Shown here one piece after another: positions 20,074 to 35,415 of a DNA stretch of 44,384 nucleotides. Position 1 is the first letter of the stretch. Every line of letters begins with the position of its first letter. The stretch is from Candidatus Peregrinibacteria bacterium (GTDB lineage: Bacteria; Patescibacteriota; Gracilibacteria; CAIRYL01): positions 1 to 44,384 of the forward strand of contig JACRHZ010000069.1 in the NCBI GenBank assembly GCA_016220175.1, in the 5' to 3' direction. Under the pieces are notes generated by a model, which was not told the origin of the DNA, did not search any database, and saw only the letters and a list, made by a program, of their open reading frames with translations. The translations under genes and the position numbers were made by a program.

Positions 20074-21747
20074 TCAATACACTTCTTTCAAATAACACTC
20101 CTCACAATATACAATCTCTGGTCTCTCCGGCGCGTATGTCGTCTGAATCTCTTTCTGACATTTTGCGCAATTTCTTGTCCAGAGTTTGCGCGGGTTTCTG
20201 AGCGCCATTCGGTGCGCATGTCGAACATCCGGATGATAGTGCGGAATCGGCAAATTCATCTTTCGATAAAATTCGAGTTCTGCTTTCTGGATTTTAAAAA
20301 GCTTCCCCGATTCTTCACAAATTATTGCCCAGTTTAAAATATCGTCTGGAATGTCTGTAATCGAATTTGGTAATTTTTGAGCAGGGATTTTTTTGGTAAT
20401 TCCCGAATCATCAAATTTTTCTTCATCTTTCCATTTCCATCCTTTTTTTAAGACTTCTTCTTTGCTCATTGGAAAGTACTCCTGAGCAATTGTTTCGTTA
20501 TATGCAAATGGTGAAATTTCGACGGGAAAGAATTCTCCCCATTCTCCGGTTTTTTGCATGTATTCAATTATTTTTGGAAGGAGTTTTTTGTATTCTTCTT
20601 TTGAATATTGTTTGTTCAGAATACAGTACTTCTTCCGTTTGAGATCAATACAGCCAAAGAGATATTCCGAATAGAAACATTCATCTGTATATGCAGAATA
20701 TTGCATATCCCAAGAGTGCAATGCAAATTTTGTGTGATAATTATTCACCGGACTCATGCTGTTGTAGACCAATTCAGCTTTTGTCGTGTAATTAATATCC
20801 TGGCAATCTTTGGAATGCCCAGGGACAAGATATGCGTACGAGCAATCTTCAAGTCCATTTGCATCAAAACACGCGAAAGAGTTTTGACACCCAACAAGGT
20901 AATCTCCGAAAGAACTTTCACAATTGATAAGATGGCTAGAACGTTCTGGTTGTGTTAAAAAAAATGTATATGCTTTTTCAAACATGAGCCTTCCATTTCG
21001 GTAGCCTTCAAGTTCGGATTTTGTCTGCGAAAATTCTTCTTCGGATACTTGTTTATTAAAAATACAATACTTCTGATTTACGAGATTTTTACATCCAATA
21101 CAATTGCTACATCCCCGACAGTCTTTGCAGAAAAAGAGAAATCTTGAATTCGTACAATCCCCACAAAATTGACATTGAAACAAATTTTGAGAATGGATGC
21201 ATTCATAACAAAGCTCACAATTATTAACCAAACTACAATCTATTGAATCGCGAGAATAGTGAGTTTGGTACGAGAAAAAAATATCTTCTGATTCAACACA
21301 TGAAACACACATGTAACAATTTTTTGAGTACACCGAATAGGGAGCGTAATCACAATTTTCGCAATGACTTATCGTCATACTTATCCGTGGAACCATTCTT
21401 TGTAATTCCAAAAATTGTTCAAAAAATGTTCGAGAAAAATCAAAATCCATTCCATATTCCAAGCCATCCCATTTGTCCATCCACCATTCATGATGGTCAT
21501 ATACGGGAAATCCTTTGTTAGTATGGTGATAGGAAATAATACTTTTCCCAGAGAGATCACATGTGCGGTAGTATAAGTGTCGTTCATTTCGAAACGTCAT
21601 TCGGCGTTGCATTCGACAATCCGGACACAACGTCGGAGGAGGAATTTCATATTTTTTCCCTCCAAAAATTGGCGAAATTTTATCATAGAATTTTAGATCT
21701 TCGTCTGTTATTCCAAATTCTGCCGAGCAATTTTTACAGGTTTTCAT
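20074..21747 (-). CDS. Cys-rich array protein 1 (function unknown)
   Basis: The 557-aa protein has 36 Cys by my count and no signal peptide or membrane segment, so it is probably cytoplasmic. The N-terminal knuckle has CKNC (4-7) and CPDC (~38-41), with the 'GGKKY' insertion that marks subtype A (copies 1, 3, 7). The middle (~130-240) repeats C-x2-C-x2-C every 14-15 residues, as in a solenoid with stacked Cys. Two long modules each end in a YC(I)xNKQ...(E)EE signature. The last ~90 residues carry CEESGKLFKIQKAELEFYR, HYHPDVRHAHRM and a second knuckle (CAKC, then YCEEC). The family is one I recall only as hypothetical proteins in CPR genomes. The start overlaps the ATPase stop by ATGA, implying coupled translation. 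Confidence 0.9.
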   Translation of the reverse strand: MKTCKNCSAEFGITDEDLKFYDKISPIFGGKKYEIPPPTLCPDCRMQRRMTFRNERHLYYRTCDLSGKSIISYHHTNKGFPVYDHHEWWMDKWDGLEYGMDFDFSRTFFEQFLELQRMVPRISMTISHCENCDYAPYSVYSKNCYMCVSCVESEDIFFSYQTHYSRDSIDCSLVNNCELCYECIHSQNLFQCQFCGDCTNSRFLFFCKDCRGCSNCIGCKNLVNQKYCIFNKQVSEEEFSQTKSELEGYRNGRLMFEKAYTFFLTQPERSSHLINCESSFGDYLVGCQNSFACFDANGLEDCSYAYLVPGHSKDCQDINYTTKAELVYNSMSPVNNYHTKFALHSWDMQYSAYTDECFYSEYLFGCIDLKRKKYCILNKQYSKEEYKKLLPKIIEYMQKTGEWGEFFPVEISPFAYNETIAQEYFPMSKEEVLKKGWKWKDEEKFDDSGITKKIPAQKLPNSITDIPDDILNWAIICEESGKLFKIQKAELEFYRKMNLPIPHYHPDVRHAHRMALRNPRKLWTRNCAKCQKEIQTTYAPERPEIVYCEECYLKEVY

Positions 21748-22895
21748 GAATTCCCCAAGAGAAATTTCTGAAAATTTTCGGGATGGATGACTTCAAATGT
21801 GCTATTTTTATAACTTTCTGAAAAAGCTTTTGGGAGTTTTCTCTTTTTTTTATGATTCCATGAAAACTCATATGCACAAAGCGTATTTCCCGCTTCCTCA
21901 ATATAATCAATCTCTTTTTGCGCGTATGTTCTCCAAAAATAGTGGTTCACGCCTTTTTGATGATTATTCAGGTATTTCATCCGTTCTGCGATACAAAAAT
22001 TTTCCCAAAGCGCTCCGATGTCATTACGAAATTCGAGGCGATTATGATTTTGAATAAGGCTGTTTCGAATGCCAAGATCCCAAAAATAAATTTTTCTGCT
22101 TTTTGTGACTTCATTCCGAAGATTCCGTTTGAGCGCCGAAAGACGAAAAATAACAAAAGCTTCTTCGAGAAGAAATAAATACCGCTGAATTACTGTTTGA
22201 TCAACTCCGAGTTTTTGAGCGAGTTCATGATATGACACTTCAGATCCGATTTGGAACGCGATAAGCCTCAAAAGCTTTGTGAGAAGTTCTGGTTTTTTGA
22301 GTTCTTGAAAGGTAAAAACATCCTTAAAAAGATAACTTCCCGTAAGTTCTTTGAGATATATTTCCGCTTCCGTTTCATTTTTTTCTGCTATTTCCGGATA
22401 ACTTCCGAACCTCAAAAGAAAATCGAGGTGCCGTTTTTGCTCATGCGGAAGTTCTTTTTGAAAAAGCTCTTCAAAGGAAAATGGAAAAAGGAGAAACTCA
22501 TGTTTTCGTCCTGTAAGCGGTTCTGATATTTTATTGGAAAGGTCAAAACTAGAAGATCCAGTCGCAATTACGCGCACATTCGGATAATCATCCACCAGTA
22601 TTTTGAGAACAAGACCAATATTTTCAATGCGCTGAGCTTCATCGAGGACAAGAAGTTGAAGATTTCGCACAACTTCCTTGAGTTTATGGCTGTTTTCATA
22701 GGCAAACACATCCCTCACATCTGCATAATCACAACTCATATATTTTGCCTTCTTTGGGTATTTTTCGATAATGTGTTTTACAAGCGTAGTTTTTCCCGCC
22801 TGACGTGGTCCATAAAGGATAATTGCCCTGTTCTTCTCTGGATGATGCCTAAGAAGCGTGCGTTCTATTTGCTTCAAAACTATTCTGTTTCTCAT
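21744..22895 (-). CDS. AAA ATPase with DUF4143 C-terminal domain
   Basis: The 383-aa protein has Walker A (GPRQAGKTT, ~29-37), Walker B LLVLDEAQRIENIG, the sensor-like IATGSSSFDLS, and a DUF4143 C-terminal half ending with FWRTYAQKEIDYIEEAG, where the E-x-D-Y-I motif recalls a PD-(D/E)xK nuclease fold. These ATPases are widespread in prokaryotes, often scattered in variable regions, and their function is not settled; DNA binding or a toxin-antitoxin-like role has been suggested. Its stop overlaps the start of Cys-rich protein 1 (TCATGA), so the two are cotranscribed and translationally coupled. Upstream, TTGATA and TGTAAT spaced by 18 bp could be its promoter. Confidence 0.88.
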   Translation of the reverse strand: MRNRIVLKQIERTLLRHHPEKNRAIILYGPRQAGKTTLVKHIIEKYPKKAKYMSCDYADVRDVFAYENSHKLKEVVRNLQLLVLDEAQRIENIGLVLKILVDDYPNVRVIATGSSSFDLSNKISEPLTGRKHEFLLFPFSFEELFQKELPHEQKRHLDFLLRFGSYPEIAEKNETEAEIYLKELTGSYLFKDVFTFQELKKPELLTKLLRLIAFQIGSEVSYHELAQKLGVDQTVIQRYLFLLEEAFVIFRLSALKRNLRNEVTKSRKIYFWDLGIRNSLIQNHNRLEFRNDIGALWENFCIAERMKYLNNHQKGVNHYFWRTYAQKEIDYIEEAGNTLCAYEFSWNHKKKRKLPKAFSESYKNSTFEVIHPENFQKFLLGNS

Positions 22896-22976
22896 AAATT
22901 TTAAAATTACATGAGTACGTTCATAATTTTATCAAAAATTACATGAAAATACAATAGAATTTATCATGAATTTTCC

Positions 22977-23071: not shown

Positions 23072-24745
23072 TCAATAAACTTCTTTAAGATAGCAAGATT
23101 CGCAATACACAATTTCCGGTCTCTCCTGAGCATACGTTGTCCGAATATATTTCTCGCATTTCATACAATTTCTGTCCCAGAGTTTGCGAGGATTTCTCAG
23201 AGCCATGCGATGCGCGTGTCGAATATCTGGATGAAAATGAGGAATCGGTAAATTCATCCTTCGATAAAATTCAAGTTCCGCTTTTTGAATTTTAAAAAAT
23301 TTCCCAGATTCTTCGCATCCAATTGCCCAATTCAAAATATCATCAGGGATTCTTTCAATCGTGGGTGGAAGTTTCACGGCTGGGATTTTTTTAGTAATTC
23401 CGGAGAAATTCGGTTCTTCTGCCTCTCTCCATTTCCATTGTCTTTGAAGAACTTCTGCTTTCTCGAGGGGATAGTATTGCATTGCTATCGTTTCATTATA
23501 TGCGAAAGGAGAAAGTGATATCGGAAAAAATTCACCGAACTCACCAGTTTTTTTCATATGTTCCATTATTTTCGGTATGAGTGCGTCGTATTCCTCTTTG
23601 GAGTATTGCTTATTGAGAATACAATAGGATTTATGCTTGAGGCTGATACATCCAAAAAGATTATGGCTATTTTGGATACAGAGTTTTGAATACCAAATAT
23701 CATGGCATCCAGACCAAATTTGATCTGAGAAAAAAATATTTCGCACACCATCTCCAATTTCGTGAACTTCATAGCAAAATTCGGCTCCTTTTCCTGCTCC
23801 AAATACGAGCATGTCATAAACATTTTTTAGATTTCGAGAATCATACACATACTTTATGTCGCGGGAATTTTGAACATCGAACGAATACTGACAATTTTTT
23901 GTGTTTTGTAAATAATCCCCTGAAGAATCTTCATTCTGAATACTATGAATATGCTTTTGGGGAAATCTCACGATGTATTCTTCAAAAAAAGATTTTTTTA
24001 CTTCCTTTCTGGGTTGATGCTGATTCACAAATACTTCTTGAAGTATTTGAAAATATTCCTCCTTCGTACACGTTTCATTGGAGAAATAATATTGCTTGTT
24101 TCTCAGATTGACACATCCAAAACAATTTTTACATCCAACACAATTCTGGAGAAAAAATGACTCACTGCAATTCTGGCAGTTGACGAGAAATTGAGAATCG
24201 TAACAATTTTGGCAGTCGACACATTCGTAGCACAGCTCTGAATTGGTGATATAAGAGGAGTCGAGACAGAATCGAGAATCATAAATATGACTGCTGTACA
24301 TGCAGCCCTCATCTCCATCAGCTTCAAAGATAAGATAGCAGTTTTTACACCATCCACATTGATTTACATAATCGCAATTTTGATTTCCTGTTGCTGATCT
24401 GGCTAATTGTGGGACTTCTCGAAAAAGCTCTGTAAACTGATCAAGGAATAGTCTGGAGAAATCAAAATTTTTCCCAAATATAAGCCCATCCCATTTATCA
24501 GAGTACCAATAATCATTATCATAGACGGTAATTTTTGTGCTTGGATGGTATGCAGAAAGAATTTTTTTCTGTGTCGCATTGCACATTCGATAATACAGGT
24601 TCCTTTCATTTCTCCAGCCTGCCCTTCGCTGCTCTCGACACTCCGGACAGATTGTCGGCGCTGGAACATCCATTTTTTTGTAGAACTCTTGATCTTCCGG
24701 GAAGATTTCAAATTCTGCCGAACAGTTTTTGCAGGTTTTATGCAT
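23072..24745 (-). CDS. Cys-rich array protein 2 (function unknown)
   Basis: The 557-aa subtype B protein has CKNCSAEFEIFPEDQEFYKK followed directly by VPAPTICPECR, without the GGKKY insertion. Its middle carries CELC- and CVDCQNCYDSQFLVNCQNC-type repeats, then FLQNCVGCKNCFGCVNLRNK. The C-terminal ~90 residues match copies 1 and 3 closely (AELEFYRRMNLPIPHFHPD, YCESCYLKEVY). The frame extends to 24781, but the ATG at 24745 gives the MHKTCKNC start shared by the family. It begins 7 bases after the stop of hepT, so it is likely read as the third gene of the mntA-hepT transcript. Confidence 0.9.
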   Translation of the reverse strand: MHKTCKNCSAEFEIFPEDQEFYKKMDVPAPTICPECREQRRAGWRNERNLYYRMCNATQKKILSAYHPSTKITVYDNDYWYSDKWDGLIFGKNFDFSRLFLDQFTELFREVPQLARSATGNQNCDYVNQCGWCKNCYLIFEADGDEGCMYSSHIYDSRFCLDSSYITNSELCYECVDCQNCYDSQFLVNCQNCSESFFLQNCVGCKNCFGCVNLRNKQYYFSNETCTKEEYFQILQEVFVNQHQPRKEVKKSFFEEYIVRFPQKHIHSIQNEDSSGDYLQNTKNCQYSFDVQNSRDIKYVYDSRNLKNVYDMLVFGAGKGAEFCYEVHEIGDGVRNIFFSDQIWSGCHDIWYSKLCIQNSHNLFGCISLKHKSYCILNKQYSKEEYDALIPKIMEHMKKTGEFGEFFPISLSPFAYNETIAMQYYPLEKAEVLQRQWKWREAEEPNFSGITKKIPAVKLPPTIERIPDDILNWAIGCEESGKFFKIQKAELEFYRRMNLPIPHFHPDIRHAHRMALRNPRKLWDRNCMKCEKYIRTTYAQERPEIVYCESCYLKEVY

Positions 24746-24752: not shown

Positions 24753-25094
24753 TTATTTGTTTTCCAAAAACATAAGCTCAAAATCTCTCTTCAATTCTGG
24801 GAGCTTATTTTTCACAATATCCCACACAATCTCATAATCAACTCCAAAGTAATCATGAATGAGCTTATCTCTTACTCCGCACAGATTTCTCCAGGGAATA
24901 TGAGGATATTTTTCCCTGAAATCAAGCGGCAGTTTTTTTGCGGCTTCCCCTATAATTTCGAGGCTTCGAATAAACGCTCTCTGAAGTACCGAATCTTTGA
25001 GAAAAATCTCTTTTTGAAGACTCGTAGATTCCTTTATGAGGAAATTCATTTCATCAAGAATATGCCGAACATATTCGAGCGGTTCAAATGACAT
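24753..25094 (-). CDS. hepT: HepT-like toxin (HEPN, DUF86)
   Basis: The 113-aa HEPN-domain protein carries the RNase motif R-x4-H-x-Y intact as RDKLIHDY (C-terminal third), followed by FGVDYEIVWDIV, which is typical of HepT. HepT is a tRNA- or mRNA-cleaving toxin neutralised by MntA, which adds AMP units to a Tyr next to the active site. The ATG at 25094 is preferred over a TTG at 25109. It overlaps the mntA stop by 11 bases, the normal arrangement for this pair, and is followed 7 bases later by Cys-rich protein 2. Confidence 0.88.
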   Translation of the reverse strand: MSFEPLEYVRHILDEMNFLIKESTSLQKEIFLKDSVLQRAFIRSLEIIGEAAKKLPLDFREKYPHIPWRNLCGVRDKLIHDYFGVDYEIVWDIVKNKLPELKRDFELMFLENK

Positions 25095-25380
25095 ATTCAA
25101 GCTCTTCAAGAATATGGGGTTTTAGATATGGACTCATGGATTCAGGAGTGAGAACATCAGCATTCCGTGAAGACAAATCTTCAAGAAAAAATACAAGATC
25201 AATATATCGAGAGAAATTCTTTTTCCCCGGTTCAAAAATAACCACAAAATCTATATCACTCTCTTTGTTCGCTGTATCCCGTGAGAATGATCCAAAAATA
25301 CCAAGTTTTTGGACCCCAAATTGACGAATTTCAGCTTCATGCTTCTGAAGTGCCTGAACAATTTCTGATTTCGTATCCAT
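25084..25380 (-). CDS. mntA: MntA-like minimal nucleotidyltransferase antitoxin
   Basis: The 98-aa protein is essentially a bare nucleotidyltransferase domain with GSFSRDTANKESDIDFVV, the GS-x10-D-x-D active site that binds ATP and two metal ions. In characterised HepT-MntA systems it adenylylates the toxin's Tyr and so blocks its RNase activity. It precedes and overlaps the toxin gene. An inverted repeat just upstream of its ATG (GATAAAA/TTTTATC, 25388-25406) is a possible autoregulatory site. Confidence 0.88.
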   Translation of the reverse strand: MDTKSEIVQALQKHEAEIRQFGVQKLGIFGSFSRDTANKESDIDFVVIFEPGKKNFSRYIDLVFFLEDLSSRNADVLTPESMSPYLKPHILEELEYVI

Positions 25381-25450: not shown

Positions 25451-27130
25451 TCAGTATACCTCCGCGAGGTAACACTCTTCACAATACACAATTTCCGGTC
25501 TCTCCGGATCATACGTCGTTTGAATCTCCTTCTGACATTTTGCACAGTTTCGATTCCAAAGCTTTCGCGGATTTCTGAGTGCCATTCGATGTGCATGTCG
25601 AATGTCTGGATGATAATGTGGAATTGGTAAATTCATTTTTCGGTAAAATTCCAACTCTGCTTTTTGAATTTTAAAAAGCTTTCCTGATTCTTCACATTGA
25701 ATTGCCCAGTTGAGAATGTCATCTGGAATATCGATGATCGAATCGGGAAGTTTCGATGCAGGAATTTTCTTCATAACTCCTAATGCATGGAATCTCTCTT
25801 GATCTTTCCACTTCCATCCTTTTGTTAGAACTTCCTCTTTGGTCATCGGAAAATATTCCTCAGCAATCGTTTCGTTGTATGCAAATGGCGACATTTGAAT
25901 CGGAAAAAACTCTCCCCATTCTCCTGATTTTTGCATATGCTCGATAATTCTGGAAACGAGCTTTTCGTATTCTTCTTTTGAATATTGTTTGTTCAGAATG
26001 CAATATTGCTCGTGACGCAGTCCAATGCATCCAAAGCAGTTACTACAATTAAAACAGAGATCCGAATAATGAGTGTTTTGCAAATATTCTCCAGTGGTAC
26101 AACTAATAGAAAAATAACTAAAATCATTGCTCATGTTCTCATAAAGAAGCTGCCCCTTCCCTCCTCCTTCAAAATCATACGAATCTTTCACTTCCATTGC
26201 CCGTGAAGAATAAGCAATGTCTTCACACCTATAAGTGGAAAAACAAAACTTCGCATTTTTGCAATTAAAAATAAGATCTCCAGAAACATTTTCATTGCTA
26301 TATCCCCTTATGCTTTCATGAATAACTTTGTTCCTTACGAGTATTCGGAACTTTTCTTTATATTCTTGTAATTTCTGAAAAGAAGAAAATTCATTCTGAA
26401 TTTTTTCGTAATCCTCTTTTGAAACTGGCTTATTTTCTAGATGATATTTTTTATTCCTGAGATTATAGCATCCGATACAATGTTCAACATTCTTGCAATC
26501 AAAACAGAACCAACTTTCTGTTACCTTACTGGAATTTTGACAAAAAAACGCACGATAATTTTCGGAGCAATCTACATTTTCATAGCAAAGTTCAGAGTGA
26601 TCGAAAAGAAAAAGATTCTCCATCGAATCCTTGCACTCACTCAGCATCTGTCCATACATGCAATCCTCATTGAACCACGATCCAAAAAGTAAATAACAAT
26701 TCTTCGAATGAGGAGCATAATTCACATAATCACAATTTTCAGTATCTCTATTAAATACATTGAACCGAGAAAGTTTTTTCTGAAGTTCTTGAAATTGTTT
26801 AAAGAAAGGTCGCGAAAAATCAAAATCCCTTCCATATTCTTTTGGTTCCCATGCATCACTCCACCATTCATGCTGTTCGTACACCGTAAATCCATATTGC
26901 GGAGCATACATGGTAATCATAGGAGCATTGCTCAGCGAAGAAACGCTTCGATACAGAGATCTATCGTTGCGATGCGTATATCTTCTTTGCATTCGACACA
27001 CTGGACAAAGCTTTGGTGGAGGAATCACATATTTTTTCCCATTGAACACAGGCGAAACTTTGTCATAAAATTTTAAGTCTTCGTTTGTGATTTCGAATTC
27101 TGCCGAGCAATTTTTACAGGTTTTGTGCAT
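25451..27130 (-). CDS. Cys-rich array protein 3 (function unknown)
   Basis: The 559-aa subtype A protein starts with MHKTCKNCSAEFEITNEDLK, then VFNGKKYVIPPPKLCPVC. The central repeats include CYENVDCSENYRAFFCQNS and WFCFDCKNVEHCIGCYNLRNK. The second module has YSDLCFNCSNCFGCIGLRHE before YCILNKQYSKEEY. The C-terminal block is conserved, but it ends LAEVY rather than LKEVY, as in copy 5. Its start is divergent from the RHH/RelE operon, with 103 bp between the two ATGs, so it must have its own promoter. The MntA/HepT operon begins 70 bp past its stop. Confidence 0.9.
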   Translation of the reverse strand: MHKTCKNCSAEFEITNEDLKFYDKVSPVFNGKKYVIPPPKLCPVCRMQRRYTHRNDRSLYRSVSSLSNAPMITMYAPQYGFTVYEQHEWWSDAWEPKEYGRDFDFSRPFFKQFQELQKKLSRFNVFNRDTENCDYVNYAPHSKNCYLLFGSWFNEDCMYGQMLSECKDSMENLFLFDHSELCYENVDCSENYRAFFCQNSSKVTESWFCFDCKNVEHCIGCYNLRNKKYHLENKPVSKEDYEKIQNEFSSFQKLQEYKEKFRILVRNKVIHESIRGYSNENVSGDLIFNCKNAKFCFSTYRCEDIAYSSRAMEVKDSYDFEGGGKGQLLYENMSNDFSYFSISCTTGEYLQNTHYSDLCFNCSNCFGCIGLRHEQYCILNKQYSKEEYEKLVSRIIEHMQKSGEWGEFFPIQMSPFAYNETIAEEYFPMTKEEVLTKGWKWKDQERFHALGVMKKIPASKLPDSIIDIPDDILNWAIQCEESGKLFKIQKAELEFYRKMNLPIPHYHPDIRHAHRMALRNPRKLWNRNCAKCQKEIQTTYDPERPEIVYCEECYLAEVY

Positions 27131-27854: not shown

Positions 27855-29513
27855 TCAATAGATTTCTTTTAAATAGCAAGCCTCACAATACACAATTTCC
27901 GGTCTCTCAGGACTATAGCTTGTTTGAATCTCCTTCTGACATTTCGCGCAGTTTCGATTCCACAATTTCGGAGGATTTTTTCGCTGTAATCTTTTGATAT
28001 AGCGGACATCAGGATGGAAATGGGGAAGAGGAATTTTCATCTTTCGATAAAACTCCAACTCTGTTTTTTGAATTCTAAAAAGTTTTCCAGACTCCTCACA
28101 TTCTATACTCCAATTTAAAATATCATCAGAAACATCTTCAATTTTGTCGGGGAGTTTTGATGCAAAGATTTTTTTCGTTGTTCCAAGAAGTTCAGTTTGT
28201 TCTTCATCTCGCCATTTCCAACCTTTTTTCAGAGCCTCTTCTTTTGTCATGGGAAAAAATTCCTGTGCCATAGTTTCGTTGTAAGCAAATAGAGAAATCT
28301 CGACAGGGAAAAATTCTCCCCATTCTCCTGTTGTTTTCATGTGATCGATAATCTCTGGAAGGATCTTCTCATACTCTTCTTTTGTGTATTGCTTATTTAA
28401 AATACAATTTTTTTTATATCTCAGCCCAATACACCCGAAAATATTTTGCGAATTTGTACAAGAATCAGTGTAGTACGAATCACTGAGCCCTCTTGCAAAA
28501 ATTGCGAAAGCGGAGTGATTGCATCCAAGAGATCCTACATGTTCATAGCATTCTGCCGCCCCAATACCAATGACGAAAGAATCATAAATATGATGGCTTT
28601 TGAGTCCTCCGAGAAAACAATAGCGACAATCTTGAAAATCAAAAGTATCAAAACATTCTTTGCAATTTTTTGAGTGCCGGAGAAGATCGCCTTCGCAATT
28701 TTCTACTTGTGTGTTTCTCACGCATTTTCGCGGGAACCGTAAGAAAAATTGAGAAAATTCTTGGGCGAATTTTTGCAAATGAGAAGAGGAGGAGGTGATT
28801 TCTGCGACTTTTTTCTCAAAATTTTCTTTCGAAAGTGGCTCGTTGAAAAAGTAATATTTTTTGTGCTGAAGATTCGTGCATCCGAAACAATACTGACAAT
28901 CTTTACAATCTAAAAGGAAATAGGAGTTACTGCAATTTTGGCAAAAGCTTGAATAAAAAAGTTCATATGAATATTCCACCGTTGAGCATTCATATACGTG
29001 TTGACAGGAAATGTTGGCATATCCATCTATGTCTTCAAGACACATGCCAGGAGTCCAAGAATAGAGGCATTTCTCTGACTGAACTGGGCAAAATGTCAAA
29101 TAGCAATCCTTTGAAGTTCCCCCATAATTACAATAATCACAATTTTCCATGGTGTCATTCACATGAAGACTTATACGCGGCATATCTTTTTGAAGCTCTG
29201 CATATTGTTCGAAAAATGACCGGGAAAAATCGAAGTCTCGTCCGTATGAAAGAGGATCCCATTTGTCGCTCATCCATTCTTTGTGGTGATATACCGTAAA
29301 TGGTTTTTCAGGAGAATAACACGAAATTATTGATTTTCCGGTGAGATCACAGATTCTCTTGTAGAGATTTCGTTCATTTCGAACAGCCATTCGCCGTTGC
29401 ATCCGGCAATCTGGACAAAGTGTCGGCTCTGGCACTTCCATTTTTTTATAAAATTCCCGATCTTCCGGGAAGATTTCGAATTTTGCCGAACAATTTTTAC
29501 AGGTTTTGTGCAT
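27855..29513 (-). CDS. Cys-rich array protein 4 (function unknown)
   Basis: The 552-aa subtype B protein (MHKTCKNCSAKFEIFPEDRE, then VPEPTLCPDCRMQRR) has the most divergent C-terminal block of the array: FRIQKTELEFYRKMKIPLP, RYIKRLQRKNPPKLW and CEACYLKEIY, where the others have RHAHRMALRNPRKLW. Its middle contains FCQNCSNSYFLLDCKDCQYC and FGCTNLQHKK. It starts 57 bp after the stop of copy 5, across the perfect 30-bp palindrome at 29535-29564. Confidence 0.9.
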   Translation of the reverse strand: MHKTCKNCSAKFEIFPEDREFYKKMEVPEPTLCPDCRMQRRMAVRNERNLYKRICDLTGKSIISCYSPEKPFTVYHHKEWMSDKWDPLSYGRDFDFSRSFFEQYAELQKDMPRISLHVNDTMENCDYCNYGGTSKDCYLTFCPVQSEKCLYSWTPGMCLEDIDGYANISCQHVYECSTVEYSYELFYSSFCQNCSNSYFLLDCKDCQYCFGCTNLQHKKYYFFNEPLSKENFEKKVAEITSSSSHLQKFAQEFSQFFLRFPRKCVRNTQVENCEGDLLRHSKNCKECFDTFDFQDCRYCFLGGLKSHHIYDSFVIGIGAAECYEHVGSLGCNHSAFAIFARGLSDSYYTDSCTNSQNIFGCIGLRYKKNCILNKQYTKEEYEKILPEIIDHMKTTGEWGEFFPVEISLFAYNETMAQEFFPMTKEEALKKGWKWRDEEQTELLGTTKKIFASKLPDKIEDVSDDILNWSIECEESGKLFRIQKTELEFYRKMKIPLPHFHPDVRYIKRLQRKNPPKLWNRNCAKCQKEIQTSYSPERPEIVYCEACYLKEIY

Positions 29514-29570: not shown

Positions 29571-31229
29571 TCAATACACTTCTGCAAGGTAGCAAGTCTC
29601 ACAATACACAATTTCCGGACGTTCCGGCGCATACGTCGTCTGAATCTCTTTCTGACATCTCATGCAATTTCGGTTGCAAAGTCTTAGTGGATTTCTGAGT
29701 TTCATTCGATGCGCATGTCGAATGTCTGGATGATAGTGGGGAATCGGCAAATTCATTTTTTGATAAAATTCAAGTTCTGCTTTCTGGATCTTGAAAAGTT
29801 TTCCCGATTCTTCGCAGATAATTGCCCAGTTCAAAATATCATCGGGAATATCTGTAATTGAATCAGGAAGTTTGGACGCAGGGATTTTTTTTGTCACATC
29901 TGAAAAATCTGGCTTTTCGATGTCTTTCCAGTTCCATCCCTTCGATCCCACATTTTCTTTTGTCATCGGGAAATATTCTTGTGCGATTGTTTCATTGTAT
30001 CCAAAAGGAGAAGTCTCCGGAGGGAAAAATTCTCCCCACGATTTTTCCTGCTCCATTTGGTGGCGAATTTTGTCCAAGAGGGAAGAATATTCTTCTTTCG
30101 AATACTCAGTATTCAAAATACAATATTGTTTGTGGTTCAGAGAAATACATCCCAAAAGATTATTTGAAGAGAAACATAAGTTCGAATACAGCAAATTATG
30201 GTCTTGCCAGCACGAATCGCAGGACATGGAAAATGATGTTGCCGTGCATCCAATAGTTTGATAACACACTTCGCCGCGATCATATCCCATGCATGTCATG
30301 TCCATGGAACTGTACGTTTCATCAATTTGCTGAGAATATGCGACATCTTCACAATTTGTACAGTCAAAAGAATTTTGAACATTTTTACAGTTTTCTAAAT
30401 TATCTCCTGTCGAATTTTCAGTATTGACTTGGTATAGTGCGCGAAATGGAAATTGTGCTCTCAATTCCGTTACAAAAAAATTTCGTGCCTTTGCGAACCC
30501 CTGAAAATTATTCAAATTGAATTCTTTCAATTTTAGAGAATATTCCTCTTTTGAATACTGTTTGTTCAAAATACAATATTCTTTGTGTCTGAGATTGGAA
30601 CAAAAAAAACAATTTTTACAATCTTTGAGTTCTACAGAAAAGAAGCAATTTTGAGAATTCTCTGAGTGATGTACATACACACATTCATAACAACTTTTTG
30701 AAAATGAGCATTCGTAACAGAGTTCAGAACCGTATAACCACAAATAATCCATACAGTTTTTGTTTTTCGTGGAGTATCTTCCATACACGGAGTCTTCTTC
30801 ATAATGATTCCCAAACGTAAGATAGCAATTTTTATTGGCAAAAGAATAATTACAATACTCGCTGTTTTCAGACTGTTTGTTCATGATAGCAAGCCGTGGG
30901 ACTTTTTGCAGAAGTTCTGAAAATTGTTCAAAAAAAGGAATTTTTTCATCAAACTTTTGTCCGTAGGAAAGTCCATCCCATGCGTCGCTGAAATAACATT
31001 CCGGACAATACACAGGAAATGGTTTGTCGGATGAGTACAGGGAAACAATTTTCTTCTCACACAAATCGCACTTTCTTTTATATAAAGTTTTTTCATTTCG
31101 AAATGCCATTCTTTTTTGAGCTCTACAATCCGGACAATATGTCGGCTCTGGCACTTCCATTTTTTTATAAAATTCCTGATCTTCAGAGAAAATTTCGAAT
31201 TCTGCCGAGCAATTTTTACAGGTATTCAT
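29571..31229 (-). CDS. Cys-rich array protein 5 (function unknown)
   Basis: The 552-aa subtype B protein keeps extra knuckle Cys that the other copies have lost: KRKCDLCEKKIV and PVYCPECYF at about residues 60-85, where the others read CDLSGK or CDFTGK and PVY followed by E/N-x-W-W. This suggests the region was originally a complete zinc ribbon. The central repeats include CYECSFSKSCYECVYVHHSE and CKNCFFCSNLRHKEYC. A variant block GEFFPPETSPFGYNETIA replaces the usual SPFAYNETIA. It starts 17 bases after the stop of the MazF-like toxin on the same strand, so it is probably cotranscribed with the toxin-antitoxin pair. Confidence 0.9.
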   Translation of the reverse strand: MNTCKNCSAEFEIFSEDQEFYKKMEVPEPTYCPDCRAQKRMAFRNEKTLYKRKCDLCEKKIVSLYSSDKPFPVYCPECYFSDAWDGLSYGQKFDEKIPFFEQFSELLQKVPRLAIMNKQSENSEYCNYSFANKNCYLTFGNHYEEDSVYGRYSTKNKNCMDYLWLYGSELCYECSFSKSCYECVYVHHSENSQNCFFSVELKDCKNCFFCSNLRHKEYCILNKQYSKEEYSLKLKEFNLNNFQGFAKARNFFVTELRAQFPFRALYQVNTENSTGDNLENCKNVQNSFDCTNCEDVAYSQQIDETYSSMDMTCMGYDRGEVCYQTIGCTATSFSMSCDSCWQDHNLLYSNLCFSSNNLLGCISLNHKQYCILNTEYSKEEYSSLLDKIRHQMEQEKSWGEFFPPETSPFGYNETIAQEYFPMTKENVGSKGWNWKDIEKPDFSDVTKKIPASKLPDSITDIPDDILNWAIICEESGKLFKIQKAELEFYQKMNLPIPHYHPDIRHAHRMKLRNPLRLCNRNCMRCQKEIQTTYAPERPEIVYCETCYLAEVY

Positions 31230-31246: not shown

Positions 31247-31603
31247 TTACGTATGAGCGATTTCCTGATTGAGTACAAATGCCGTAGAATTTTGAATTTC
31301 CTGTAGGTATTTTTGTTCCAGCCTTCCTATTTTTTTCAGGATTCGCCGTTTATCAAAAGATTTAATTTGTTCAGGAACAGCCTTAGAATTACAAAGAAGT
31401 CCATTCTTTTCTGATGCCTTCACAAAAATGTGAAAGGGCAACATTTTTTGGACATTTCCCGTGATGGGAATTAGGATGCAGAGTGGTCCTTTCACGTTAA
31501 TTTCATTGCGAGAAACGACCAGAGCAGGTCTCTTTTTTGTGATTTCAGCCCCTATTTGAGGCGCAAAATCGGCAACTACGATATCTCCGTACTTAATATT
31601 CAT
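31247..31603 (-). CDS. mazF: MazF/PemK-like mRNA interferase toxin
   Basis: The 118-aa protein opens with YGDIVVADFAPQIGAEITKK, then RPALVVSRN, which is the MazF/PemK fold, and continues with GPLCILIPITGN and FHIFV. The core G-x-E and RPALV elements are present; these proteins cleave single-stranded mRNA. The ATG at 31603 is chosen over the frame's upstream start at 31642. It overlaps the antitoxin stop by 11 bases. Cys-rich protein 5 follows 17 bases after its stop. Confidence 0.88.
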   Translation of the reverse strand: MNIKYGDIVVADFAPQIGAEITKKRPALVVSRNEINVKGPLCILIPITGNVQKMLPFHIFVKASEKNGLLCNSKAVPEQIKSFDKRRILKKIGRLEQKYLQEIQNSTAFVLNQEIAHT

Positions 31604-31886
31604 AGAGATCTTCAATGCCAGAGTCCATAATATCTTTCTCATCCTGAGGAATGTTCTGGTAGTATTCTTCTATTTGATCTGCAAGGGTTTTTCCTGTTTT
31701 CATCTTTTCCTTCTTTCTTTTTTCTAATTCAATATCTTTTATCAGGGAGTATCCGGCGAGGACGCATACGGGCTCATTCTCCTGATTCACAATAACAATA
31801 TAGTCATCCGTCTTCGCAAGGCGCTTTATTTCCCGATAGAGCCTCGGCTGGAGATTTGTGGGACGAATTGTATTTGAAGTCTTCAT
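31593..31886 (-). CDS. Phd/YefM-like antitoxin partner of the MazF-like toxin
   Basis: The 97-aa protein has an N-terminal part resembling Phd/YefM (NTIRPTNLQPRLYREIKR, then DDYIVIVNQENEPVCVL) followed by a charged tail (GKTLADQIEEYYQNIPQDEK) likely to bind the toxin. The ATG at 31886 is preferred over one at 31922. It has a consensus-quality promoter with a palindromic operator in its spacer, and start-site geometry that implies a leaderless or nearly leaderless mRNA. Confidence 0.75.
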   Translation of the reverse strand: MKTSNTIRPTNLQPRLYREIKRLAKTDDYIVIVNQENEPVCVLAGYSLIKDIELEKRKKEKMKTGKTLADQIEEYYQNIPQDEKDIMDSGIEDLYEY

Positions 31887-31892
31887 ACCACC

Positions 31893-31922
31893 ATTGTACC
31901 CAATTGGGTCTCCAATTGTCAA
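31893..31922 (-). promoter_or_regulatory. Promoter and operator of the MazF-type operon
   Basis: On the minus strand TTGACA (31922-31917), an 18-bp spacer and TACAAT (31898-31893). The spacer contains a perfect palindrome ACCCAATTGGGT (31898-31909) and a second CAATTG core (31913-31918), probable sites for autorepression. The predicted start site coincides with the A of the ATG at 31886. Confidence 0.7.
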
Positions 31923-31982: not shown

Positions 31983-31984
31983 CT

Positions 31985-33649
31985 TCAATACACTTCTTTC
32001 AAATAACATTCTTCGCAGTACACAATTTCCGGCCTTTCCGGTGAGTACGTCGTCTGAATCTCCTTCTGACATTTCGCACAATTTCGATTCCATAGCTTTC
32101 TCGGATTCCTGAGCGCCATGCGATGCGCGTGTCGAATGTCAGGATGAAAATGTGGAATCGGCAAATTCATTTTTCGATAGAATTCCAGTTCTGCTTTTTG
32201 AATTTTAAATCGTTTTCCAGATTCTTCACATTCTATTGCACAATTCAAAATATCATCTGGAATATCGGTGATCGAATCAGGAAGTTTTGATGCGGGAATT
32301 TTTTTCATAATTCCCGACGCATCAAATTTTTCCTCTTCTTTCCATTTCCAACCTTTTTGTAAAACTTCTTCTTTTGTCATCGGAAAATATTCCTGTGCGA
32401 CAGTTTCGTTGTAGGCGAATGGTGACATTTCAACAGGAAAAAATTCACCCCATTCTCCAGTTTGTTTCATGTGCTCGATAATTTTGGGAATAATCTCTTC
32501 ATATTCTTTCTTTGAGTATTTTTTATTCAAAATGCAATATTCTTCTCTTTTGAGTCCAACGCATCCGAAACAATTTTTTGTTGAAAAACAATGATCTGAA
32601 TACGTGAGATCATGAGAACCAGACCAGCAAAGATTACAAAATCTGAGATTATAGACATCATATCCACATGCATGGCATTCATAGATCCACTCTGCATTTT
32701 GACCCCAATAGTTGTAGTCCATTGAGTTTTTACTACTCTGGAGACAGACGGAATATCGCAGATCTTCTGAATTCGTGCATTCGTAACACAGAAAACAATT
32801 TTTGCAATTATTTAAATAATCACCGGTCGAACTATAAACACTAAGTCCATGAAATTCTTTGACAATGAGATCTTTCAAAACCCCATCAATTCTTTTTTTT
32901 GCTACTGACATTTCTCGGGAACTTCCCGTGTGGACACTTTTGAGAAACTTTTCATATTCCTCCTTCGTCTTTTGCTCATTAAGTACCATGTATTCTTTGT
33001 GAATTTGATTGCTGCAGCCAAAGCAATTGCGGCACTCCGTGCAATTTCGCAGAAAAAAAGAGTCACGACAACCGTATGAGTCTCGACAATATCGCAAATT
33101 GTAACAATTTTTGCAGCCTATACATTCATAACAGAGTTCGCATCGATCAATACTAAGATTATCGATGCAGTTTTTTGAATAGTTTACCCATGAACCGTAA
33201 GAGCAATCTTCAGAATGATTTGTGGAAAATACGAGGTAACAATTCTTATTAAGGCTCGCGCAATTACAATATTCACTGTTTTCCATTGGTCTTTGTTGTT
33301 GCAGTGCAGAACGAGGAATAGTATCACGAAGTTCAAAAAATTGTTCAAAAAATGGCCGCGAAAAATCAAGTGATCGTCCGAATTTAAGTGGATTCCACGC
33401 GTCACTCCACCACACATCATTTCCATATACGGGAAAAGGTGTATCTACGGGAAATTGAGAAATAATCTCTTTTCCCGTGAAGTCACACTTACGACGAAAT
33501 AGATACCGTTCTTTTCGATACCCAAGACGACGTTGCATCCGACAAAGAGAACAGAGTATCGGCTCCAGAACTTTCATTTTCTTATAAAACTCCTGATCTT
33601 CGGGAAAAATTTCGAATGATGCCAAGCAATTTTTGCAGGTTTTGTGCAT
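31985..33649 (-). CDS. Cys-rich array protein 6 (function unknown)
   Basis: The 554-aa subtype B protein has a CSLC in place of CPDC in its first knuckle (VLEPILCSLCRMQRR). Its repeats run CELCYECIGCKNCYNLRYC, then FFLRNCTECRNCFGCSNQIHK, and in the second half CKNCFLCYECTNSED and FSTKNCFGCVGLKRE. The C-terminal block has CEESGKRFKIQKAELEFYRK and ends CEECYLKEVY. It starts 83 bases from the stop of copy 7, with the second 73-bp palindromic element between them. Confidence 0.9.
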   Translation of the reverse strand: MHKTCKNCLASFEIFPEDQEFYKKMKVLEPILCSLCRMQRRLGYRKERYLFRRKCDFTGKEIISQFPVDTPFPVYGNDVWWSDAWNPLKFGRSLDFSRPFFEQFFELRDTIPRSALQQQRPMENSEYCNCASLNKNCYLVFSTNHSEDCSYGSWVNYSKNCIDNLSIDRCELCYECIGCKNCYNLRYCRDSYGCRDSFFLRNCTECRNCFGCSNQIHKEYMVLNEQKTKEEYEKFLKSVHTGSSREMSVAKKRIDGVLKDLIVKEFHGLSVYSSTGDYLNNCKNCFLCYECTNSEDLRYSVCLQSSKNSMDYNYWGQNAEWIYECHACGYDVYNLRFCNLCWSGSHDLTYSDHCFSTKNCFGCVGLKREEYCILNKKYSKKEYEEIIPKIIEHMKQTGEWGEFFPVEMSPFAYNETVAQEYFPMTKEEVLQKGWKWKEEEKFDASGIMKKIPASKLPDSITDIPDDILNCAIECEESGKRFKIQKAELEFYRKMNLPIPHFHPDIRHAHRMALRNPRKLWNRNCAKCQKEIQTTYSPERPEIVYCEECYLKEVY

Positions 33650-33653
33650 GTTC

Positions 33654-33726
33654 CGGAAAGCGACACGGCGTCCATCGGGTCTGAGGACCCTTCAGGGTCT
33701 CGAACGACCGTGTCGCTTTCATGATA
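33654..33726. repeat. 73-bp palindromic element, copy 2
   Basis: Same orientation and sequence as 19995-20067 except for one C/T difference. It lies 4 bases upstream of the start of copy 6 and 6 bases from the stop of copy 7. The two copies bracket six paralogs and all the TA cassettes. Confidence 0.9.
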
Positions 33727-33732
33727 GACGAT

Positions 33733-35415
33733 TTAGTACACTTCTTTCAAATAACACTCCTCACAATACACCATCTCCGGTCTTTCCGGTGCGTACGTCG
33801 TCTCCATTTCTTTCTGGCATTTCGTACAATTTCGATTCCATAGCTTTCTCGGATTTCTGAGCGCCATTCGGTGTTTATATCGAACATCAGGATGAAAATG
33901 CGGAATGGGTAAATTCATTTTTCGATAGAATTCGAGTTCCGCTTTTTGGATTTTAAATGGTTTTTCGGATTCTTCACAAATGATCGCCCAATTCAAAATG
34001 TCATCGGGAATTTCTGAAATATGACATGGAAGTTTCGATGCGGGGATTTTTTTCTTCACGCCAGAAAAATCTGGTATTTCTTCCTCTCTCCACAGCCAAT
34101 TTTTTTGAGTAACTTCTTCTTTTGATAACGGAAAATGCTGCTGAGCAATGGTTTCATTGTAGGCAAATGGCGAAAGAGATACGGGGAAGAACTCTCCAAA
34201 TTCGCCGATTTTTTTCATATGATCTATGATTCTGGGAACGAGATTTTCATATTCTTCTTTTGAATATTGTGTATTCAAAATACAGTATCTTTTATTTTTG
34301 AGTCCAACGCATCCGAAACAATTTTGAGAAGCATGACATTCATACGAATACAGAATATTTGATGATGACGTCCATGCTCCTTGGGTAAAAATGGTGTTAT
34401 AACTCCTATATCCAACACTGATCGAATCGTACGCAAGTTCATTTTCTGTCGTATTCGTCACATCCAAAAGATCTTTTACATTGAATCCAGCGTAAGTGAA
34501 TCTACAGTCTTCACTTGAAACGCAATCGAAACTTTCTGTACAATTTTTACAAGAAACCAAGTAATCTCCAATGCAACTTTCTGAGTTTAAATTATGACTC
34601 GCTCTTTGAATTTGGCTCAATTTGAATTCTGCAAATTCGGCATCAGTCCCCTTTCTGTCTTCGAAAAGACGCTGAAGAAATTCTTCTTTTCGCTTCTGAT
34701 ATTCCTCTTTTGAATATTTTACATTTTTGATGCAATAGCTCTTTTGCACCAGATTGGAACACATGATGCAGTCATTACACCCCTGACAATTGGCGAGATA
34801 AAATGAATCGGAACAGTTTCTGAGGCTTTGGGAAAAAAACACCTGATATGAATTTTCTATATTCACGCAGTCATAACAAAAATGGCAATCGGAAACCTCT
34901 GTTCCATCAAAACAAAAACTCGAACGAATGATGTGTTCTGAATACATCGAATCCTCATTATATTCTCCGGCAAAAACAAGATAACAATTTTTATTGAATG
35001 CGGAGAGATGAACATATTCACTATTTTCATTGGAGAAAGCAGAGAGGTTCATTCGGGGAACGTCAAAAATCAATTCTTTCATCTGATCGAAAAATGAACG
35101 AGAAAAATCAAAATTTCTTCCGTAGCTCAGCGCATCCCATTCCTCACTCCACCAGATTTCATGCGCATACACCTTCATTGGATTTTCTGGATGATAAATG
35201 GAGACAATCGGCTTTCCGGAAAAATCACATTTTCTTCGAAATAAACTGCGTTCATTGCGAAATGCGAGTCTTCGTTGCTGCCGACAATCCGGACAAAATG
35301 TTGGAGATGGAATCAAATATTTCTTTCCTCCAAAAACTGGCGAAATATTTTCGAGGAATTTTTCATCTTCCGGGGAAACCTGAAATGATGCCGAACAATT
35401 GACACATTTTTTCAT
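33733..35415 (-). CDS. Cys-rich array protein 7 (function unknown)
   Basis: The 560-aa subtype A protein (MKKCVNCSASFQVSPEDEKF, then VFGGKKYLIPSPTFCPDC) is the outermost copy of the array. Its repeats include CHFCYDCVNIENSYQVFF, YLANCQGCNDCIMCSN and CIGDYLVSCKNCTESFDC. The C-terminal knuckle is a variant (CTKCQKEMETTYAPERPEMV). It shares with copy 1 both the subtype A start and the 73-bp element 6 bases beyond the stop, so copies 1 and 7 probably descend from one duplicated unit. Confidence 0.9.
   Translation of the reverse strand: MKKCVNCSASFQVSPEDEKFLENISPVFGGKKYLIPSPTFCPDCRQQRRLAFRNERSLFRRKCDFSGKPIVSIYHPENPMKVYAHEIWWSEEWDALSYGRNFDFSRSFFDQMKELIFDVPRMNLSAFSNENSEYVHLSAFNKNCYLVFAGEYNEDSMYSEHIIRSSFCFDGTEVSDCHFCYDCVNIENSYQVFFSQSLRNCSDSFYLANCQGCNDCIMCSNLVQKSYCIKNVKYSKEEYQKRKEEFLQRLFEDRKGTDAEFAEFKLSQIQRASHNLNSESCIGDYLVSCKNCTESFDCVSSEDCRFTYAGFNVKDLLDVTNTTENELAYDSISVGYRSYNTIFTQGAWTSSSNILYSYECHASQNCFGCVGLKNKRYCILNTQYSKEEYENLVPRIIDHMKKIGEFGEFFPVSLSPFAYNETIAQQHFPLSKEEVTQKNWLWREEEIPDFSGVKKKIPASKLPCHISEIPDDILNWAIICEESEKPFKIQKAELEFYRKMNLPIPHFHPDVRYKHRMALRNPRKLWNRNCTKCQKEMETTYAPERPEMVYCEECYLKEVY

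What the first reader, a model, noticed from the sequence alone, without database searches (positions are those of the whole stretch)
20074..35415. Seven-copy array of Cys-rich proteins of unknown function interleaved with toxin-antitoxin cassettes
Seven co-oriented, intact paralogs of 552-560 aa occupy most of 15.3 kb. They share both ends but diverge strongly in the middle, and no stop or frameshift spoils any copy, so each seems to be kept by selection. The gaps between them hold four different mobile or addiction-type cassettes (DUF4143 ATPase, HepT-MntA, RHH-RelE, Phd-MazF). The pattern of constant ends, variable middle and many copies resembles recognition or receptor families. The interleaved TA modules resemble those that stabilise repeat-rich islands and superintegrons. 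What these proteins recognise is not known.
Basis: partly seen in the sequence, partly recalled or inferred. Interest (0 to 1): 0.85.

Follow-up and report, generated by a model that had tools for sequence, protein, structure and literature searches.

The report
Zinc-solenoid protein array with dedicated ATPase
Seven related cysteine-rich proteins in this tiny bacterium belong to a large undescribed family that tends to come and go together with one particular motor-like ATPase, and their 'variable' middles turn out to be old, fixed, distinct types rather than fast-changing ones.

Summary
The array is real: seven intact, co-oriented paralogs (552-560 aa) at 20074-35415. The host is a 1.49-Mb Patescibacteria genome with about 12 copies; relatives carry up to 25 matches. 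AlphaFold2 and profile comparison give an A-B-B'-A' design: two homologous zinc-finger-like ends around two beta-solenoids of the 12-residue-coil kind known from beetle antifreeze protein.

Between paralogs the solenoids are the most divergent part; between the closest orthologs they are mostly the best conserved part (dN/dS about 0.02-0.07). They form at least 40 old types, rarely two per genome, reshuffled in order. The C-terminal ends are instead homogenised within genomes, in places with tracts that look like gene conversion.

Unforeseen partner: a soluble VirD4/TraG/HerA-type ATPase, in 26 of 28 genomes with the full-length family and 0 of 32 others, usually just downstream of a family gene. 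TrmB-type regulators head a number of arrays divergently. The toxin-antitoxin genes look local.

Best reading: interchangeable, type-specific solenoid proteins serving one motor through shared ends (adaptor or cargo). The genetic link is strong; the biochemical role is inferred. The paper searches made (listings) showed no description of it.

The parts
33733..35415 (-). Copy 7 (560 aa), first of the array in reading direction
31985..33649 (-). Copy 6 (554 aa), modelled by AlphaFold2; solenoid type shared with L075, L054, L034
33305..33649 (-). Copy 6, N-terminal zinc-finger-like domain A (about residues 1-115), homologous to the C-terminal one
32966..33304 (-). Copy 6, solenoid 1 (about residues 116-228): 12-residue coils, inward C/S every third residue
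32531..32866 (-). Copy 6, solenoid 2 (about residues 262-373), homologous to solenoid 1 plus cap
31988..32242 (-). Copy 6, C-terminal zinc-finger-like domain A' (about residues 470-554)
29571..31229 (-). Copy 5 (552 aa); passes the Pfam zf_Tbcl cut-off
27855..29513 (-). Copy 4 (552 aa)
25451..27130 (-). Copy 3 (559 aa)
23072..24745 (-). Copy 2 (557 aa from ATG); passes the Pfam zf_Tbcl cut-off
20074..21747 (-). Copy 1 (557 aa), last of the array
21744..22895 (-). Interleaved DUF4143 AAA ATPase (one of 7 in the genome; matches PADLOC candidate PDC-S01); judged incidental
24753..25380 (-). Interleaved HepT-like plus nucleotidyltransferase pair (the only HepT match of the genome; a relative sits in a gap of L045); judged incidental
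27234..27807 (+). Interleaved 76-aa ORF plus RelE-like ORF; judged incidental
31247..31922 (-). Interleaved PemK/MazF-like toxin plus 109-aa partner; judged incidental

Best explanation
The seven genes belong to a Patescibacteria module: soluble beta-solenoid proteins with a zinc-finger-like domain at each end, plus one dedicated, soluble VirD4/TraG/HerA-type ATPase, often with a divergent TrmB-type regulator at the array head. SHOWN by sequence and model: anatomy, internal duplication, phyletic co-occurrence, adjacency, old solenoid types nearly unique within each sampled genome, and ends (C2 above all) more alike within genomes than between them. INFERRED: the shared ends are the handle through which all types engage the same partner, most simply the ATPase, or each other. 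Each solenoid presents one variable face that is fixed within its type and binds its own conserved target. The ATPase works on, or is directed by, whichever solenoid protein is bound: one motor with many interchangeable adaptors. That the solenoid proteins are adaptors rather than cargo of the motor is a preference, not a result.
For: Co-occurrence: ATPase at 900 bits or more in 26 of 28 genomes with the full-length family and 0 of 32 others, Fisher p 5e-15; concordance 58 of 60, reached by 1 of 20,000 permutations made within taxonomic families, seven of which are mixed. Second set of 34 genomes that I picked: 5 of 6 carriers, 0 of 28 others at 800 bits or more. Adjacency: of the 26 ATPases, the 19 given to all lie within 1.2 kb of a family copy, 13 within 150 nt, 17 on the same strand, 16 directly downstream of a co-oriented copy; the copy beside the ATPase may be of any type (3 of 300 pairs at 0.5 or more; background 1.5%). 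TrmB: 18 of 95 listed genes lie within 1 kb of a listed copy (0.65 expected), 16 of them divergent. Evolution: the nearest relative lies in the same genome for 3 of 235 copies by solenoid and 63 of 235 by C2; end tracts of high nucleotide identity that stop at the solenoid; solenoid conserved between orthologs; C2 identity follows ATPase identity weakly over 23 genomes (Mantel rho 0.28, 47 of 999), the solenoid does not (-0.22). Structure: pLDDT 93, pTM 0.92; duplicated ends and solenoids. No clear membrane segment by hydropathy in the family or in ten ATPases.
Against: No physical contact between the family and the ATPase is shown, and zinc binding itself is inferred from Pfam matches partly below their cut-offs. 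G029 and G211 carry the full-length family without an ATPase above 650 bits. The window's own array has neither ATPase nor TrmB beside it; these stand with another copy on contigs C70 and C8. The ATPase model was built from ATPases chosen because they lie beside arrays, and at least two of its ten rows come from genomes in the test set. Outside the class the score gap narrows: some genomes without the full-length family reach 651-786 bits. The correlation of C2 with the ATPase is weak and not corrected for species phylogeny, and N (84 of 999) and all ends together (57 of 999) are weaker still. N and C1 are homogenised less than C2 (32, 26 and 63 of 235). VirD4-type ATPases usually serve secretion, which favours the cargo rival.
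Confidence: 0.5

Rival explanations
1. Secretion cargo: the solenoid proteins are substrates that the VirD4-like ATPase feeds, through their shared C-terminal domain, to a type IV secretion channel, possibly into the host of an episymbiont.
For: VirD4/TraG/TrwB Pfam matches. A shared C-terminal domain on otherwise different proteins, each nearly the only one of its type in a genome, resembles effector suites with a common C-terminal signal (Stenotrophomonas/Xanthomonas; seen in the listing). Patescibacteria widely encode T4SS parts, and most of their VirD4 homologues lie away from virB4 (PMC12102498, abstract and passages).
Against: Ten of ten ATPases lack a clear membrane segment. Elaborate ends at both termini and Cys-rich solenoids, with no parity of Cys number (124 even, 141 odd), look like reduced cytosolic proteins. 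No T4SS channel gene stood out among array neighbours, but only the 25 commonest families are listed.
Confidence: 0.25
2. Innate-immunity-like sensors: each solenoid type recognises a conserved feature of phage or foreign DNA and signals to the common ATPase.
For: Fixed types, nearly one per genome, reshuffled and patchy; HerA-like ATPases occur in defence systems (recalled; weak PADLOC matches to mad8 and HerA); two cassettes in this array match PADLOC candidate families.
Against: No PADLOC match for the one copy tested; housekeeping neighbours (GatB, SmpB, DNA ligase, ribosomal proteins) in several loci; no nuclease or other toxic effector recurs among the 25 commonest neighbour families.
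Confidence: 0.12
3. A hetero-oligomeric structural assembly in which the ends polymerise and the solenoids form the body.
For: Ends homogenised within genomes; co-oriented, closely spaced genes (161 of 161 adjacent pairs on one strand; opposite-strand copies were later seen in L137).
Against: Composition differs widely between genomes (1 to about 25 matches; different type sets), and G005, 87% complete, shows a single copy.
Confidence: 0.08
4. Metal or thiol storage, or redox buffering, by Cys-rich proteins.
For: 24-52 Cys per protein, most of them in the solenoids.
Against: In solenoid 1 Cys shares its inward positions with Ser, Leu, Val and other residues (0.43 C, 0.18 S, 0.10 L), as core packing would; old types fixed by selection and a dedicated ATPase are not expected for a buffer.
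Confidence: 0.06
5. Hypervariable recognition or antigenic family in an array stabilised by TA modules.
For: Constant ends, diverged middle, many copies, four cassettes in the gaps of this array; HepT-MntA also in a gap of L045; RelB, HEPN and nucleotidyltransferase matches among other gap ORFs.
Against: Solenoid conserved between orthologs with dN/dS 0.016-0.066 in the L031/L037 pairs; few same-type pairs within a genome; TA-type genes are a minority of gap ORFs.
Confidence: 0.04

Closest known systems
Type IV coupling proteins (VirD4/TraG/TrwB) and HerA ATPases
   Same: The partner ATPase matches PF02534, PF10412 and PF12696 (9 of 10 each) and PF01935 (10 of 10) and keeps Walker A (GKSGSGKSK) and a Walker B with DEFQNF in the sequence printed.
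   Different: No clear N-terminal membrane segment; stands beside solenoid genes; within the class its full-length subfamily is set apart by a score gap (914 bits and above against 649 and below).
Tenebrio molitor antifreeze protein (1EZG) beta-solenoid
   Same: 12-residue coil with inward small or Cys residues every third position in solenoid 1; best structural match of solenoid 1 alone, Z 8.2, 82 of 82 residues, rmsd 2.5, next entry Z 5.2.
   Different: 10% identity; Foldseek E 3.0 only, and a best Z of 7-8 is common for models without a clear match (note); Thr is the commonest residue in no outward column listed except one; zinc-finger-like ends; bacterial.
Probable treble-clef zinc fingers zf_Tbcl (PF13451) and zf_Tbcl_2 (PF23477)
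   Same: N and C ends match them; two of seven copies pass the PF13451 cut-off, none the PF23477 cut-off.
   Different: Here both ends are versions of one domain (hhalign 99.8%) around two solenoids.
T4SS effector suites with a common C-terminal signal (X-Tfe type; name recalled, C-terminal consensus seen in the listing)
   Same: Shared C-terminal part, different functional parts, one coupling-type ATPase.
   Different: Both ends are shared, all bodies have one fold, and no channel genes or secretion evidence are known here.

Membership tests
Type IV coupling protein (VirD4/TraG) for the partner ATPase | T4CP-type P-loop ATPase domain | tested here: met
   PF02534, PF10412 and PF12696 each match 9 of the ten proteins scanned; Walker motifs in the sequence printed
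Type IV coupling protein (VirD4/TraG) for the partner ATPase | N-terminal membrane anchor | tested here: not met
   highest 19-residue hydropathy 0.92-1.18 in 10 of 10
Type IV coupling protein (VirD4/TraG) for the partner ATPase | relaxase or T4SS channel genes nearby | tested here: inconclusive
   none among the 25 commonest families of 125 and 59 neighbour ORFs; rarer families were not printed
HerA ATPase (HerA-NurA type) | HerA central domain DUF87 | tested here: met
   PF01935 over its cut-off in 10 of 10
HerA ATPase (HerA-NurA type) | NurA nuclease partner | tested here: inconclusive
   not among the 25 commonest neighbour families
Tenebrio-type antifreeze proteins | 12-residue coil with the matching fold | tested here: met
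   (clear in solenoid 1, weaker in solenoid 2), Z 8.2, only a little above what the tool calls common
Tenebrio-type antifreeze proteins | regular Thr-x-Thr ice-binding face | tested here: not met
   no regular run of Thr among the commonest residues of the solenoid-1 columns printed by phase
T4SS effectors with a common C-terminal signal | shared C-terminal domain on proteins that otherwise differ | tested here: met
   C2 0.78 against solenoid 0.33-0.36 in the window
T4SS effectors with a common C-terminal signal | translocation out of the cell | not testable with these tools
   needs experiment
Hypervariable receptor or antigen family | variable part evolves fastest between orthologs | tested here: not met
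   solenoid against ends in the seven closest pairs: 98/88, 92/87, 93/81, 88/72, 86/76 and about equal 86/86, 83/80%; reciprocal best pairs chosen by ends: solenoid higher in 18 of 28
Hypervariable receptor or antigen family | positive selection in the variable part | tested here: not met
   NG86 dN/dS 0.016, 0.065 and 0.066 over both solenoids in the three L031/L037 pairs
TA-stabilised gene array (superintegron-like) | TA modules recur between copies in related arrays | tested here: not met
   of the window's cassettes only HepT-MntA has a relative among 76 gap ORFs, in one array; TA-type families are a minority of those ORFs; 76 ORFs were picked by me, 94 candidates
TA-stabilised gene array (superintegron-like) | integrase and attC-type sites | not tested
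   -
AAA+/motor adaptor proteins | physical binding to the motor and to a client | not testable with these tools
   needs experiment

The most novel reading that the evidence does not exclude
Patescibacteria of the Peregrinibacteria/Gracilibacteria class run a 'one motor, many modules' system: a soluble VirD4-type ATPase served by up to about 25 interchangeable beta-solenoid proteins with double zinc-finger ends, drawn from an old pool of at least 40 fixed specificities. The common ends are kept matched to the local motor by gene conversion, while the specificities are exchanged and reshuffled between genomes. This would be a modular recognition or delivery machine unlike any described.
Probability: 0.3. 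Interest if true: 0.88.

Novelty: categorically new. Interest (0 to 1): 0.74.

Why it matters
In genomes near 1 Mb, spending up to about 25 genes of 1.7 kb on one family implies an important role, yet Pfam and NCBIfam recognise little more than its zinc-finger-like ends, PADLOC gives no match for the copy tested, and PHROGs gives only one weak match, to a family of unknown function. The partner gene makes the role testable: a published survey found that most VirD4 homologues of Patescibacteria lie away from virB4 and left their role open (PMC12102498, abstract and passages), and one subfamily now has an obvious partner. The inverted conservation pattern (old fixed specificities, ends homogenised within genomes) is a clear evolutionary signature for a shared hub.

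Tried and rejected
Rejected: hypervariable middle; TA stabilisation as a general feature; recent origin of the seven copies (longest exact matches only somewhat above codon-shuffled copies, mean 23.1 against 17.8 nt, no shuffle round reaching it); phage or plasmid origin (copy 6 has no match in phages or plasmids; one fragment among viral contigs; one weak PHROGs match, E 3.8e-5, for copy 6); an acyltransferase function suggested by left-handed beta-helix enzymes in the whole-model comparison (best Z 5.8), since solenoid 1 alone matches 1EZG better; a special 'core' type beside the ATPase. Foldseek with the whole model gave nothing at E 1e-3 in PDB or viral models; a few short viral zinc-ribbon proteins came up at E 0.05 and above. 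In the sequence search of PDB, 1EZG came up only at E 8.5 and LIM-type Cys-rich proteins at 0.06 and above; the ATPase profile matched no PDB sequence at E 1e-3.

Results that blur the picture: type identity across genomes is only weakly vertical (correlation 0.21, permuted 0.00 sd 0.06, the highest of 300 permutations 0.23), so exchange between genomes is likely but was not separated from duplication and loss. Types were made by single linkage at 50% and many genomes are sampled only in part. Three pairs of copies in one genome fall in one type, and one of them, G032 L101, is an adjacent pair with a converted-looking N end. Reciprocal best pairs show solenoid above ends in 34 of 46 (chosen by solenoid) and 18 of 28 (chosen by ends). 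The order test limits gaps in the observed set but not in its shuffles. Opposite-strand copies were seen in L137. Adjacency of ATPase and family was tabulated for 19 of 26 genomes; for the other seven (G001, G013, G015, G033, G034, G038, G050) no nearby copy was in the printed, truncated lists. G047 was counted as a miss, though a 750-aa ATPase (585 bits, 34-37% identity to three rows) lies inside its array when read with code 25. Eleven of the 32 'others' in the first set have weak or short matches to the family. The share of ATPase-adjacent pairs (2.0%) counted one gene several times; one search repeats it without repeats.

Rows dropped: eight code-25 loci, partial copies and identical proteins before the counts (282 to 265 rows); loci L001-L023. 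Gaps are measured between open frames, so gaps between genes are somewhat longer.

By title and start of abstract, paper searches listed nothing that describes the family or its link to an ATPase; one search found no paper. Of PMC12102498 I saw the abstract, outline and passages; of the others the listing only.
Full report
OBSERVATION. The seven co-oriented genes at 20074-35415 are intact, 552-560 aa with ATG starts, and hold 29-40 Cys each. They share ends and differ in the middle: mean identity 0.55 (N), 0.36 (solenoid 1), 0.25 (linker), 0.33 (solenoid 2), 0.69 (C1), 0.78 (C2). Synonymous sites are at or near saturation, with a modest excess of identical codons in N and C2, so the copies are old and the ends are alike mainly through purifying selection. 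The excess of exact nucleotide matches between copies is small (mean 23.1 against 17.8 nt in codon shuffles). The genome (G000, 1.49 Mb, 79 contigs) has 13 matches, two of which cover complementary parts of the protein near contig ends, so about 12 genes.

FAMILY. The profile matches 39 of 60 genomes (the own and 59 relatives), with up to 25 matches per genome. In 28 of these 60, the own included, the best match is of full-length grade (E below 1e-100). In a sample of 239 genomes of the phylum the full-length family is largely limited to the window's class; G072 and G211 outside it carry it, and many others have only a match to the C-terminal domain. Named records that carry it are mostly labelled Peribacteria, Peregrinibacteria, Gracilibacteria, Abawacabacteria or just Patescibacteria (one each labelled Bacteroidetes and Micrarchaeota), and some read TGA as a residue. 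Tandem arrays are common: 161 of 161 adjacent pairs lie on one strand and 97 of 161 gaps between open frames are under 150 nt; opposite-strand copies occur in L137. Copy 6 has no match in phages or plasmids.

STRUCTURE. AlphaFold2 with 107 sequences gave pLDDT 93.0 and pTM 0.92. The order is zinc-finger-like domain, solenoid 1, helical cap, solenoid 2, helical cap, C1, zinc-finger-like domain. Profile comparison shows that N and C domains are homologous (99.8%, E 9e-30) and that the two solenoid-plus-cap parts are homologous (99.9%, E 4e-36), while three cross-controls stay at 1.2% or less. Solenoid 1 has a 12-residue period with inward Cys/Ser every third residue; in solenoid 2 the period is weaker. 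Solenoid 1 alone (pLDDT 83.5) matches the beetle antifreeze protein 1EZG at Z 8.2 over 82 of 82 residues, the next entry at 5.2. Foldseek's own E-value for it is not significant (3.0), and the tool warns that a best Z of 7 to 8 is common, so the fold match rests on the repeat geometry as much as on Z. In solenoid 1 one outward face (phases 0, 1, 3, 4; entropy 1.3-2.2) is conserved; the other (phases 6, 7, 9, 10; 2.8-3.4) varies between types and is nearly fixed within the 15 types with five or more members (0.55-1.15).

INVERSION OF CONSERVATION. Orthologs: the seven closest pairs by overall identity, three of them syntenic in L031/L037, show solenoid against ends of 98/88, 92/87, 86/86, 93/81, 83/80, 88/72 and 86/76% identity; in the three L031/L037 pairs NG86 dN/dS over both solenoids is 0.016, 0.065 and 0.066. 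Paralogs: over 265 distinct copies from 65 genomes, the nearest relative lies in the same genome for 3 of 235 by solenoid, 55 of 235 by ends, 63 of 235 by C2, 32 of 235 by N and 26 of 235 by C1; solenoid identities of 0.6 or more occur in 251 pairs, none within a genome (5.5 expected). On FastTree trees of 184 copies, genome labels change 147 times for solenoids (shuffled 144.0 sd 2.5) but 116 times for C2 (143.7 sd 2.5). At 50% identity there are 40 types with two or more members (203 rows) and 62 singletons; three types hold two copies from one genome. G032, with 20 sampled copies, has 18 different types of that list. Recent conversion is suggested where ends match at 83-97% of nucleotides and drop sharply at the solenoid (G032 L101; G025 L116). 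Order is reshuffled: 85 distinct among 96 typed adjacencies, 10 repeated against 7.8 shuffled.

PARTNERS. The gene next to many arrays encodes a 743-758-aa ATPase with T4SS-DNA_transf, TrwB and HerA-type matches, no clear membrane segment and 54-75% identity to the first of ten rows. In 60 genomes it reaches 914-1414 bits in 26, all of them family carriers; every other listed match is 649 bits or less. So 26 of 28 carriers and 0 of 32 others have it (Fisher 5e-15); the misses are G029 and G047, and G047 has a diverged 750-aa version inside its array. Shuffling within taxonomic families, seven of them mixed, reached the observed concordance of 58 of 60 once in 20,000. In 34 further genomes that I picked, 5 of 6 carriers and 0 of 28 others pass 800 bits; G211 is the miss, and among the others the best are 786 bits in G240, which has a partial relative of the family beside that ATPase, 734 in G122 and 692 in G070, so outside the class the gap is narrower. 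The partial relatives in G240, G122 and G236 lie within about 1.4 kb of an ATPase-like match, a weak one (about 50 bits) in the last two. In 19 genomes tabulated of 26, the ATPase lies within 1.2 kb of a family copy, 13 within 150 nt, 17 on the same strand. In the own genome it is at G000:C70:1863-4097, after a copy that begins on another contig. The copy beside it is of no special type.

REGULATOR. TrmB-type genes: of 95 listed in genomes with listed copies, 18 lie within 1 kb of a copy (0.65 expected) and 16 are divergent from it; both lists were truncated by the tool. TrmB number and copy number correlate over 60 genomes (rho 0.60; not corrected for phylogeny). The minimal locus is G005:C19: TrmB, one copy, ATPase.

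TA MODULES. The four cassettes are real but look local. Only HepT-MntA has a relative among 76 gap ORFs, in one array (L045). HepT occurs in 8 of 60 genomes and beside a listed copy only here; PemK has 2 and DUF4143 has 7 places in the own genome, one of each in the array. Other TA-type matches in gaps (RelB, HEPN, nucleotidyltransferase) are few.

MECHANISM. A hub that all types share best explains ends matched within a genome and solenoids fixed across genomes; the ATPase, the only gene with the same phyletic pattern that I found, is the natural hub. Over 23 genomes C2 similarity follows ATPase similarity weakly (rho 0.28, 47 of 999 permutations) and solenoid similarity does not (-0.22). Whether the motor moves clients chosen by the solenoids (adaptor), or moves the solenoid proteins themselves (cargo), cannot be told from sequence. 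I prefer adaptor because motor and proteins look soluble and both ends are elaborate zinc-finger-like domains. [quoted passage not shown]

NOVELTY. ATPase fold, treble clef and 12-residue solenoid are known; their combination as a module was found in no library searched (Pfam, NCBIfam, PHROGs, PADLOC) and in no paper listing seen. 'Categorically new' refers to this anatomy; if the cargo model is right, it would be a new variant of coupling-protein and effector systems.

Noticed in passing
window 6017-12961 (-), 128-1585 (+), 40949-41674 (+): Three proteins with S-layer homology domains, one of 2314 aa and one with a weak caspase-like (Peptidase_C14) match, in one 44-kb window.
   Followed up: no
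window 1598-2284 (-): 228-aa protein with two zf_Tbcl_2 stretches (117 bits), the finger family that the C-terminal end of the array proteins weakly matches.
   Followed up: no
G240:C19, G122:C1:790-792 kb, G236:C1:119-121 kb: Outside the class, partial relatives of the solenoid lie within about 1.4 kb of an ATPase-like match (weak in G122 and G236), which hints that the pairing is older than the full-length family.
   Followed up: partly
L127:3351-5600 (G047, TGA recoded): A diverged 750-aa relative of the ATPase (34-37% identity to three of the ten rows) inside an array of a recoded genome.
   Followed up: partly
L031 5283-6941, L037 5305-6969, L047 5035-6852: A family copy that scores about half of the others (321-359 bits) is kept in three genomes and is still under purifying selection in the L031/L037 pair.
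   Followed up: no
window 4013-4873 (+); L141:3746-4180 (-): Bro-N domain proteins in the window and beside another family copy of the same genome; ORF6N matches in four gap ORFs of arrays.
   Followed up: no
window 15082-19279 (-): ABC transporter genes of the ABC_transp_aux/DUF4340 kind downstream of the array.
   Followed up: no
window 21744-22895 and 25084-25380: The DUF4143 ATPase and the nucleotidyltransferase match PADLOC candidate defence families PDC-S01 and PDC-S09.
   Followed up: no
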